From assembly GCF_018143015.1 (NCBI RefSeq), contig NC_054746.1, positions 18,591,532 to 18,655,531 of the forward strand: 64,000 nt of DNA. Reading direction: 5' to 3'. This DNA comes from Lytechinus variegatus (taxonomy: Eukaryota > Echinodermata > Echinoidea > Temnopleuroida > Toxopneustidae). Positions 8,301 through 11,300 of this stretch are shown piece after piece (position 1 is the stretch's first letter; each line of letters starts with the position of its first letter). The notes below the pieces were generated by a model. The model was not told the origin of the DNA, did not search any database, and worked only from the letters and a program-made list of their open reading frames with translations. The position numbers and the translations under genes were made by a program.

Positions 8301-11300
8301 TTTTCTCTATTGATTGAAATCAACAATTTTCTGAGGTGGACTTGACCTTTAAACGTAACCCTTAGCCTAACTTAACCTATTGCAACCCAACCCTAACCCT
8401 ACAGCTTAGACAAAATGAAGCCTGGAGCAATCGTCATGCCCCCACCCCCTGGTGACTTACAGTTTGTCTTCAGATGATTTGCATTTTTGGGTGAGGTAAT
8501 CTCTGAGGATGTGTGATATGTCAGGATGTGGGGCCCATTGTCCTGGAGGAGTTGCCCTGTTACAATCACAATGACTTTGTGACTCCTATTAGTTTCACAT
8601 AACAAAGGATAGACCAACAGAAAAGTTTTTAGCCAAGTATGAAATGGCACATTTTTTCAATTCTATGTTGTTTTTTTTGCAGTTTTGTTGTTATTTGGAC
8701 TGTATGAAAGGAAGAACTTACATGGATCAACACATTTTGAAATTTAAAATACAGCTACTTGAATATTTCAGGTCGTTTAGGAGTTTATTTGGATTTTATA
8801 TGAATTGCAGCTAGGGTGTCACTCTTGTCGGGGGCGGTGTGGGTAATTTGTCAGTTATTGTTTTTGCATTCTTCTCATTATCTGTCTTATGTGTATTGAT
8901 TTCATTTTGTATCATTTTATGTCATTTTCACCATTATCTGTAGCCCACGTCCTATAATTATTTAATGTTTTACATGAAACATTGAGGAGAGCTAATAATT
9001 GAAAGAACCACATGATTGGGTTGATTTTTTTCATAATATGATTGTGCAATACTGTACATATTGTAGATATGAGTATGTATGCAAAGAATGTACACAAAGC
9101 ATACAACATGGAAATACAATGCGGAGATTTTAGATTTCAACCCTATATCAAATTACCAGTAAAACTGATGAGGAATTGTGTGATACTAATCTCTATGTTC
9201 TCACTTTTTTTGACTAACCTATGTAGTGACTAATGCCTCAGTCACATTTGCTCTACGGCGGCCGTACAGCGAGTCGAAAACGGACATTTTAACATTTTTT
9301 TGCAATAGCTACATATAGGCCGCCGTAGAGCAAATGTGACTGAGGTATAACCTGTAAAGTCACTCCTTGATAACCTGTCTATGTCTCTTAATGTCAGCCT
9401 AACACAAGTTGATTTCTCCTACAAATGGTCACCTTCCATCTTTGATTATAGTGGCTTGTGTAACCATTTTTCTCGAGGATACATTTCACCTGTCAAGACC
9501 TTCTATCTGACCAACTTTCTACTTTTCTTATTTAGTCACTTTGTTCAGATTCTTTTTCTGCCAAAAAGCAGATGATTTTGAGAGTGTCAATGCCTCTCCG
9601 TTTAAAAAACCCCTGTAATTTCAGTGAACAAAGCCTGTAAGATATGAGGTGTCAAAAATGTGAGAGAGGCAGGAAAACTTGGTATTGTCAGTTTGCCATA
9701 CTACTTCATACTCGCTGCCAACAAATCATATATTTTTATCAAAAGATATTAGTGAAAAATAAATTTTGTACAGAGTTGCACTCATCAACTCATGACCTAA
9801 CAATGAAGTCATTATGATATCATTATTTGTCTTCATACTTTTGACATTCTTTTTAGACTTAAAGCACAATGCTTTGTATCCATAAGCCCTGATGAGAAGA
9901 AGAAGAACTGTTTTGCAAAACTACCTGAACTTAGCGAAGTTTTGTTGTACATTGTGTAAAGGATACAGATTATTTTTTTTTATTCTTAGGTTAATATCAA
10001 GGTAAGCAAGTGTTTTTAACTTACCTTCTAAACTCATCTCAATCGGGATAATCTTCCATTGATCCGACTAGTCTATCTTAGTCGGATCACCTTTTCTTGA
10101 CCACTTGTCTCTTCTCTATCACACACACACCACCCTTGCTCACTCTTAACCCTGTATGCCGCTCCTGCAATGTAGATCACTCTGCCAAGGATGGCCTTTT
10201 GCTGTGGTGTCAGCGCAAGACTGCCCCCTACAGAAACGTCAACATCCAGAACTTCCACAATAGGTAAACAAATTGTTGTTGTAAACAACAATGAAACATT
10301 CGCGTGAGGTAAACGATACTGCTGTGTCACTAACCTAAACATTTTTTCCCCCAGGTTACTTCCATTTGAACATACAATACACAGTAAAAATGCTATTTGC
10401 TATATGAACATTACAGTAGTGGTTTAAACAGATTAAACAAGTGTTTAAAATCTTAAGCAAAAAAATATTAAATTTGATATTCAATTCTCGATTAATCAAG
10501 CATGGTTGTTTAAACTTTAAACAACTTCTGTGAGGTTCATAGAGTAATTGTATAAATGTTTAAACAGCGTTTTTACTGTGTATACATCACACTGGGTCAT
10601 CGTCTCGTCTGCATGTTTTCTTTCCTTATACATCTTTGCAATTACGATGTATGTCTAACTCGTCATCTAACCCCAAACCTATTTTTCATGCAGCATTTTC
10701 CTACCTTTTAGTATGCAGATTCAAACAAGAAAGTGCTAGATTTAACGCATGGCATGGCTCGTTTGTGTGTTCCCCTCATGTTGGATTTTCAAGTTTGTGT
10801 TATCTCATGCAGATACTACCGCCAGAGACGGTCTCTTACTATGGTGTCAGCGTAAAACCGCGCCCTACAAGAACGTATCCATCAAGGACTTTCATATGAG
10901 GTGACTGAAACAAAATCTTAAAAGACTCCCACAAAATTCTTCTTTCTCAACCTTTTTCCAGCAATTCAGGGTTTAAAAGAAAACAAAATTTGAGTTTTTA
11001 GAAATTCTTTCTTTCAACCTCTCAATCTTCTCTTGAGTAATTCAACCTTAAAAAAAATTTAAGAAGAATTTGCAAAATTATGCTGTTAAGACAACTTTTA
11101 AACAAATTTCGATCAGAAAATAGTGAAATTATATGCAGGACTTGTACTCTCATGCTTTCCACATTTCATTTCTACCTCCATGCCTATTTGCATAAGGTGC
11201 CACAAAAGTGTCCAGAGTTAAACACTTAACGAAGATGCAGATACAAGCAAAAGGCTTTTGTCATATTTGATTTGTCATGTACATGTACAGCACATCATGT

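What the first reader, a model, noticed from the sequence alone, without database searches (positions are those of the whole stretch)
10176..10900. Mutually exclusive duplicated exon in the actin-binding domain of alpha-actinin
Two 88-nt exons, 549 nt apart, encode alternative versions of the start of CH2. They share [12 protein letters not shown] and differ in [28 protein letters not shown] and the final Asn/Met. Both have good splice sites and the same phases. Using both or neither shifts the frame, so only one can be used in a working protein. This stretch includes the CH2 helix counted as an actin-binding surface in CH-domain pairs, so the switch could tune actin affinity by tissue. Vertebrate alternative splicing that I know of uses other exons (exon 8 and 19a/19b).
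Basis: partly seen in the sequence, partly recalled or inferred. Interest (0 to 1): 0.78.

Follow-up and report, generated by a model that had tools for sequence, protein, structure and literature searches.

The report
Swappable exon pair in alpha-actinin
An animal muscle and cytoskeleton gene carries two alternative versions of one small exon in its actin-binding domain, both apparently kept working by selection, so the animal can probably choose between two slightly different alpha-actinin proteins; this is a known kind of arrangement, here at a place where I found no earlier report of it.

Summary
Exons A (10176-10263) and B (10813-10900) are both 88 nt, GT-AG, with the same phases, in the only alpha-actinin gene that my search of an 870 Mb genome found. 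They match at 61/88 bases and 22/30 residues. Silent differences are saturated while amino-acid change is low, which a decaying copy does not explain. Using both or neither gives an early stop. None of the 19 other coding exons identified in the window has a second copy there. The pair is very probably an old, mutually exclusive tandem exon duplication, but splicing itself is untested: no RNA was available.

The exon encodes the start of CH2 and two of three residues thought to bind PIP2 in ACTN2 (163, 169). Residue 169 is Arg in A, as in vertebrate muscle actinins, and Lys in B, as in non-muscle ones. A regulatory switch fits at least as well as a changed actin-binding face.

The kind is known: actinin genes of vertebrates, fly and worm carry tandem duplicated exons, and fly Actn is alternatively spliced in the same domain. 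I also found two homologous candidate first exons about 27.5 and 34.8 kb upstream of exon 2. Most of the excess RNA folding between A and B comes from a transposable hairpin element.

The parts
5096..5330 (+). alpha-actinin exon 2 (CH1), joins phase 0 to a first exon outside the window
   Evidence: tblastn with ACTN2; acceptor CAG, reading [10 protein letters not shown] from 5096
6141..6227 (+). exon upstream of the pair, 87 nt, donor AAG|gtgggg
10176..10263 (+). exon A (88 nt), [29 protein letters not shown]; the copy nearer to vertebrate actinins, slightly closer to muscle ACTN2
10264..10812 (+). intron between the two exons, 549 nt (348 nt without the inserted element)
10380..10580 (.). 201-bp hairpin (MITE-like) element inside that intron, TA on both sides, 80-82% identical to 39 other scored copies; not thought to be part of the exon mechanism
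10813..10900 (+). exon B (88 nt), [29 protein letters not shown]; the more diverged copy, slightly closer to non-muscle ACTN1
17476..17554 (+). exon downstream of the pair, 79 nt ([27 protein letters not shown]), contains the residue equivalent to ACTN2 Arg192
23973..24491 (+). next two actin-binding-domain exons (23973-24054 and 24406-24491); the 86-nt second one appears to be the vertebrate 'exon 8' position (recalled numbering); neither has a second copy in the window
41610..41849 (+). EF-hand exon; no second (19a/19b-like) copy in the window
42631..42789 (+). last coding exon, ends ...YGQSEL and a TAA stop

Best explanation
A and B are an ancient tandem duplication of one actin-binding-domain exon, spliced one at a time, so that a single gene makes two alpha-actinins that differ at 8 residues at the start of CH2. 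Shown from sequence: both copies are intact, in phase, bounded by canonical splice sites and under purifying selection; using both or neither gives an early stop. Inferred: the choice is made by trans-acting splicing factors, with nonsense-mediated decay removing double-inclusion and skipping products, because the intron is not short, the sites are ordinary GT-AG, and no RNA pairing stood out after correction. Inferred with less certainty: the switch changes phosphoinositide control and/or CH1-CH2 opening (Arg169 to Lys, Gln174 to Lys, Asn175 to Asp), with A the muscle-like and B the non-muscle-like form.
For: Anatomy and phases. Selection: pS 0.88 (saturated), dN 0.17, 12 of 22 conserved residues with silent changes; a model with B neutral reproduces the pattern in at most 0.0007 of 20,000 trials at any of six divergences, one with both copies constrained in up to 0.31. 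No other exon in the window has a second copy: 21 peptides for 20 exon positions searched. The genome-wide protein search (26 matches) shows no second actinin gene. Similarity ends near the exon edges (114-nt alignment, 71%), so the flanks are no longer alignable and the duplication is old. PIP2 is thought to bind Arg163, Arg169 and Arg192 of ACTN2 (PMC4980809, passage); 163 and 169 lie in this exon, and 169 is R in A and K in B. A's best hits are ACTN2 chains (70.3 bits; ACTN1 68.6), B's are ACTN1 (64.6; ACTN2 61.8). With either exon the CH match stays far above Pfam's cut-off of 26 (178.6 and 175.8 bits).
Against: No RNA or protein evidence: exclusivity and tissue use are untested. No relative's genome could be searched, so conservation across species is unknown. 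The muscle/non-muscle leaning rests on two positions (169, 178) of eight; in identical residues it is only 26 against 25 of 30 for A (ACTN2, ACTN1) and 22 against 21 for B (ACTN1, ACTN2), and full-length ACTN2 chains score no better than ACTN1 for A (68.5-68.6 bits). R to K is conservative, and PIP2-site mutants are reported not to alter F-actin binding. CELF-, PTB- and RBFOX-like motifs near the exons do not survive correction for 40 tests (smallest corrected value 0.09).
Confidence: 0.85

Rival explanations
1. Exon B is a dead or dying copy: A is always used and B is a pseudo-exon left from an old duplication.
For: B has diverged more: of 8 differing positions, B alone departs from all four vertebrate actinins at five, A alone at one, both at one (178). 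Both donors are weak for the gene.
Against: Saturated silent change with 22/30 residues kept, no stop and canonical splice sites; a neutral B gives this in at most 0.0007 of trials. Very recent death cannot be excluded by this test.
Confidence: 0.05
2. B acts mainly as a poison exon: inclusion together with A makes a stop and lowers protein output, rather than making a second protein.
For: A+B has a stop inside B, far upstream of many later exon junctions.
Against: B alone gives a full open frame and keeps the CH2 sequence, which a poison exon does not need. Skipping both would also give a stop.
Confidence: 0.06
3. The exons are kept apart by RNA structure (docking or a hairpin in the intron between them), not mainly by protein regulators. 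This is compatible with the best explanation in all but mechanism.
For: The intron folds much better than shuffles (z -3.97). The B acceptor pairs with sequence just after exon A (shuffle fraction 0.047, or 0.034 without the element) and with the intron after B (0.02). Without the element the intron still folds somewhat better than shuffles (z -1.72, 3 of 100 as good).
Against: Most of the excess is the transposable hairpin element itself (alone z -6.18), which has 39 other scored copies at 80-82% identity. Two of 12 site-by-region pairings fall below 0.05; the better one becomes 0.24 after correction. Among 14 control exons one reaches 0.065.
Confidence: 0.12
4. Artefact: a mis-assembled second haplotype or a paralogue fragment placed in the intron.
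For: Only one assembly was available.
Against: 31% base difference with saturated silent sites, unrelated flanks, and no second actinin gene in the search.
Confidence: 0.01

Closest known systems
Drosophila Actn (non-muscle RA, adult muscle RB, larval muscle RC)
   Same: Single alpha-actinin gene, alternatively spliced within the actin-binding-domain region with tissue- and stage-specific forms (PMC4550062 section 7); muscleblind loss shifts the choice (PMC3315501 section 6); listed among gene families with tandem duplicated exon events (PMC9741552 section 17).
   Different: The exact fly exons could not be read (the 1992 source is not held). The fly RC product is 67 bp longer than RA/RB in the RT-PCR (335 and 402 bp), whereas A and B are equal in length. 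Whether the fly pair is the same exon is therefore open.
Vertebrate ACTN1/ACTN4 exon 19a/19b
   Same: Tandem duplicated, substituted exon in an alpha-actinin gene, tissue-specific, changes regulation (PMC4550062 passages; PMC9741552 passages).
   Different: Lies in the first EF hand and changes calcium sensitivity; reported as seeming to have arisen in chordates. The EF-hand exon here has no second copy in the window.
C. elegans atn-1
   Same: Named as an actinin gene with a tandem duplicated exon event (PMC9741552) and as an ETR-1/CELF target with differential alternative splicing (PMC8734324 passages).
   Different: Exon position not given in the passages read.
Vertebrate muscle (ACTN2/3) and non-muscle (ACTN1/4) paralogues
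   Same: Residue 169 is Arg in muscle and Lys in non-muscle forms, as in A and B; residue 178 is Thr against Ile, here Asn against Met.
   Different: Made by separate genes in vertebrates, by alternative exons of one gene here; the other six differences have no such parallel.

Membership tests
Mutually exclusive tandem duplicated exon pair | Two adjacent homologous exons | tested here: met
   tblastn E 1.4e-13 between A and B, 549 nt apart
Mutually exclusive tandem duplicated exon pair | Same length or phase, so either fits the frame alone | tested here: met
   88 nt each, same phases
Mutually exclusive tandem duplicated exon pair | Using both or neither breaks the frame | tested here: met
   stops in both cases
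Mutually exclusive tandem duplicated exon pair | Both copies under coding constraint | tested here: met
   codon-position pattern and simulations
Mutually exclusive tandem duplicated exon pair | Transcripts contain exactly one of the two | not testable with these tools
   no RNA data available
Alpha-actinin gene | Tandem CH domains, spectrin-like rod, EF hands in one gene | tested here: met
   ACTN2 matches in order from residue 42 to 894 over 5093-42786; CH domains by Pfam; the 16 best of 71 matched structure sequences are alpha-actinins. Rod and EF hands rest on the ACTN2 match alone.
RNA-docking (Dscam-type) exclusive splicing | Significant, conserved intron pairing at the splice sites | tested here: inconclusive
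   12 pairings, best shuffle fraction 0.02, no relatives to compare
Steric exclusion by a short intron or distant branch point | Intron too short, or branch point near the upstream donor | tested here: not met
   549-nt intron; AG dinucleotides at 21 to 121 nt before exon B and branch-like sites at 39 and 72 nt before it; the branch point itself was not mapped

The most novel reading that the evidence does not exclude
One gene rebuilds the vertebrate muscle/non-muscle alpha-actinin set by combining two first exons (separate promoters) with two CH2 exons, and the CH2 switch changes phosphoinositide control of the actin-binding domain (Arg169 against Lys169), convergent with the ACTN2/3 and ACTN1/4 split.
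Probability: 0.25. Interest if true: 0.62.

Novelty: new member of a known kind. Interest (0 to 1): 0.42.

Why it matters
If the two exons are used by tissue, this would be another case of tandem exon duplication in alpha-actinin, at the start of CH2 beside the reported phosphoinositide site. It gives a natural pair of proteins, 8 residues apart, for asking whether this stretch sets actin affinity, CH1-CH2 opening or PIP2 control, and whether one gene can do by splicing what vertebrates do with gene copies.

Tried and rejected
RNA structure as the cause of exclusivity: the inter-exon intron has a strong fold (z -3.97), but most of the excess is a 201-bp hairpin element scattered in the genome (element alone z -6.18, intron without it z -1.72). 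Pairing of the four splice sites with three intron stretches was not notable for 12 tests. A 91-nt inverted repeat flanks both exons (9229-9319 and 11593-11683); its 9225-9355 side belongs to a repeat family with 39 other scored copies, and the other arm was not searched on its own.

Splicing-factor motifs (MBNL, RBFOX, CELF, PTB, QKI, NOVA, hnRNPA, ESRP) in five regions: raw excess of CELF-like and GCATG motifs between the exons and PTB-like motifs outside them, none significant after correction for 40 tests. I chose the motifs and regions, and the motif definitions are recalled.

A stretch VNLRNFH at 24225 looked like a third copy; E 0.85, rejected. Promoter motifs upstream of the two candidate first exons (MEF2-like before 1a, one CArG before 1b) are too few to interpret. 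Leaning of first exons 1a and 1b to muscle or non-muscle N-termini: both score best with ACTN2, so there is no discrimination, and this does not help the bold reading.

Species: genome size (870 Mb) and contig length made me think of the sea urchin Lytechinus variegatus from memory; the genome paper is not held, so this is unverified. Lek 2010 and Roulier 1992, probably the two most relevant papers, are not held.

Full report
What is there. The window holds an alpha-actinin gene on the + strand from exon 2 (5096) to the last coding exon (42631-42789): a typed ACTN2 protein matches in order from residue 42 to 894. Exon A is 10176-10263 and exon B 10813-10900; both are 88 nt, start after AG, end before GT, and fit between the donor at 6227 and the acceptor at 17476. 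With split codons they read [30 protein letters not shown] and [30 protein letters not shown]. A alone or B alone keeps the frame; A then B stops inside B; using neither stops in the next exon.

More than chance. A and B share 61 of 88 bases and 22 of 30 residues; the 27 differences fall 5, 5 and 17 on codon positions 1, 2 and 3; pS is 0.88 (beyond correction) and dN 0.17. Random substitution of 27 bases in A kept 22 or more residues in 1 of 200,000 trials, mean 13.7. If A is constrained and B neutral, data like these arise in at most 0.0007 of 20,000 trials at any of six divergences; with both constrained, in up to 0.31; the model starts from A as ancestor and its constraint values are my choice. 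I searched 21 peptides, covering 20 exon positions with A and B both included, against the window: apart from A and B, no exon has a second copy (best other hit E 0.05). None of the 21 has a copy in 35 kb upstream (best E 0.10). Similarity between the two regions is confined to a 114-nt alignment around the exons, 71% identical, so the duplication is old.

One gene. In the window's own genome (869.6 Mb, 33 contigs) exon A's DNA matches only itself; that search also misses B, so it says nothing about diverged copies. The protein search with the actin-binding domain has 26 matches: 7 in this gene (six exons at 88-100% identity and exon B at 67%) and 19 elsewhere at 34-61%. The genome's relatives cannot be searched with these tools, so conservation across species is unknown. 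No call names the organism; a sea urchin is my guess from memory.

Which copy is nearer the old form. At the 8 differing positions, four vertebrate actinins agree with A at five (152, 154, 172, 174, 175) and with B at one (151). The other two differ between vertebrate muscle and non-muscle forms: 169 is Arg in ACTN2/3 and in A, Lys in ACTN1/4 and in B; 178 is Thr in ACTN2/3 and Ile in ACTN1/4, here Asn and Met. A's best hits are ACTN2 chains (70.3 bits, ACTN1 68.6) and B's are ACTN1 (64.6, ACTN2 61.8); the whole domain shows the same order (with A, ACTN2 408.2 and ACTN1 404.6; with B, ACTN1 401.9 and ACTN2 400.5). The leaning is slight: A is identical to ACTN2 at 26 and to ACTN1 at 25 of 30, B to ACTN1 at 22 and to ACTN2 at 21, and full-length ACTN2 chains score A no better than ACTN1 does.

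What the switch may do. The exon covers the start of CH2. [quoted passage not shown] A review places actin-binding sites ABS2 and ABS3 across both CH domains and calls CH2 a steric negative regulator (PMC10046292, passages). Residue 163 is the same in A and B; 169 changes from Arg to Lys; 174 and 175 change from Gln-Asn to Lys-Asp. I therefore favour a change in lipid control or in CH1-CH2 opening over a changed actin face, without proof. Both versions keep strong CH scores (178.6 and 175.8 bits; cut-off 26).

How exclusivity may work. The intron between A and B is 549 nt, 348 nt without an inserted 201-bp hairpin element (10380-10580) that is 80-82% identical to the 39 other copies scored (1,611 first-look candidates). 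It is not too short, and branch-like sites sit close to both acceptors. Most of the intron's excess folding (z -3.97) is that element (alone z -6.18); without it z is -1.72, with 3 of 100 shuffles as good. Twelve pairings of splice sites with intron stretches give best shuffle fractions 0.02 and 0.047, both for the B acceptor, not notable for 12 tests. Both donors are weak: A third and B fifth lowest of 20 in the gene, with base frequencies recalled by me and one exon boundary (39006) not settled. Regulation by trans-acting factors with decay of wrong products is thus the default, by exclusion. CELF-like, GCATG and PTB-like motifs are in raw excess but not after correction for 40 tests.

Beyond the window. 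Two stretches upstream on the same strand look like alternative first exons: 1a at G000:C7 18561760-18561843 (MADEYMKQEEEWDHKGLLDPDWERQQKK, donor gtacgg) and 1b at 18568976-18569101 (MAYYGNQDHYAYDDDEDDYMKQEEEWDREEVLDPAWEKQQRK, donor gtaggt), both phase 0 into exon 2. They end 34.8 and 27.5 kb before exon 2 and share 18 of 26 aligned residues (E 6e-12). Over their last 27 codons the differences fall 3, 6 and 9 on the codon positions, a weaker sign of constraint than in A and B. Their surroundings have CpG ratios of 1.30 and 1.26 against 0.50 for the region, as promoters might. So the gene may vary at two places; no transcript was seen for either.

Comparison with what is known. Invertebrates generally have one actinin gene, and fly Actn is alternatively spliced within the actin-binding-domain region into non-muscle, larval and adult muscle forms (PMC4550062, passages and section 7). 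Fly muscleblind affects that choice (PMC3315501, passages and section 6). Actinin genes of vertebrates, fly and worm are listed with tandem duplicated exon events as part of a case for convergence (PMC9741552, passages and section 17). S. purpuratus is counted with one ACTN gene (PMC5888912, table passage). Passages of a paper on sea urchin alpha-actinin in cytokinesis showed nothing on its splice forms (PMC11467475). Ten searches listed no title or abstract start about this exon pair in an echinoderm; several lists were cut (for example 20 of 50), the library holds only open-licence papers, and the phylogenetic study of actinin splicing (Lek 2010) is not held. I file it as a new member of a known kind.

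Verdict.

Noticed in passing
G000:C7 18561760-18561843 and 18568976-18569101 (loci L029/L031 and L027/L032), outside the window: Two homologous candidate first exons of the same gene, ending 34.8 and 27.5 kb before exon 2, both in phase, with high CpG ratios around them: possible alternative promoters giving two N-termini.
   Followed up: partly
window 10380-10580: A 201-bp hairpin element with TA on both sides sits in the intron between the two exons; 39 other copies were scored, 80-82% identical.
   Followed up: partly
window 9229-9348 and 11518-11687: Hairpin repeats flank the exon pair in inverted orientation (91 nt, 85% complementary); pairing could loop out both exons or favour a circular RNA. 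The 9225-9355 side is a repeat family in this genome.
   Followed up: partly
window 10328-10355: A strong-looking 3' splice site (CACTAAC ... TTTTTTCCCCCAG|G) lies about 90 nt after exon A, with no exon recognised after it.
   Followed up: no
window about 49600-64000: Repeats about 4.27 kb apart with near-identical 237-aa frames that look kinase-like by eye (50544, 54819, 59092, - strand), and frames that look like reverse transcriptase by eye at 61047-62155 (+ strand).
   Followed up: no
window 41099-41144 joined to 41610-41660: The first EF-hand loop across the exon junction reads [12 protein letters not shown], which fits a calcium-binding loop by recalled rules, so this actinin may be calcium-sensitive.
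   Followed up: no
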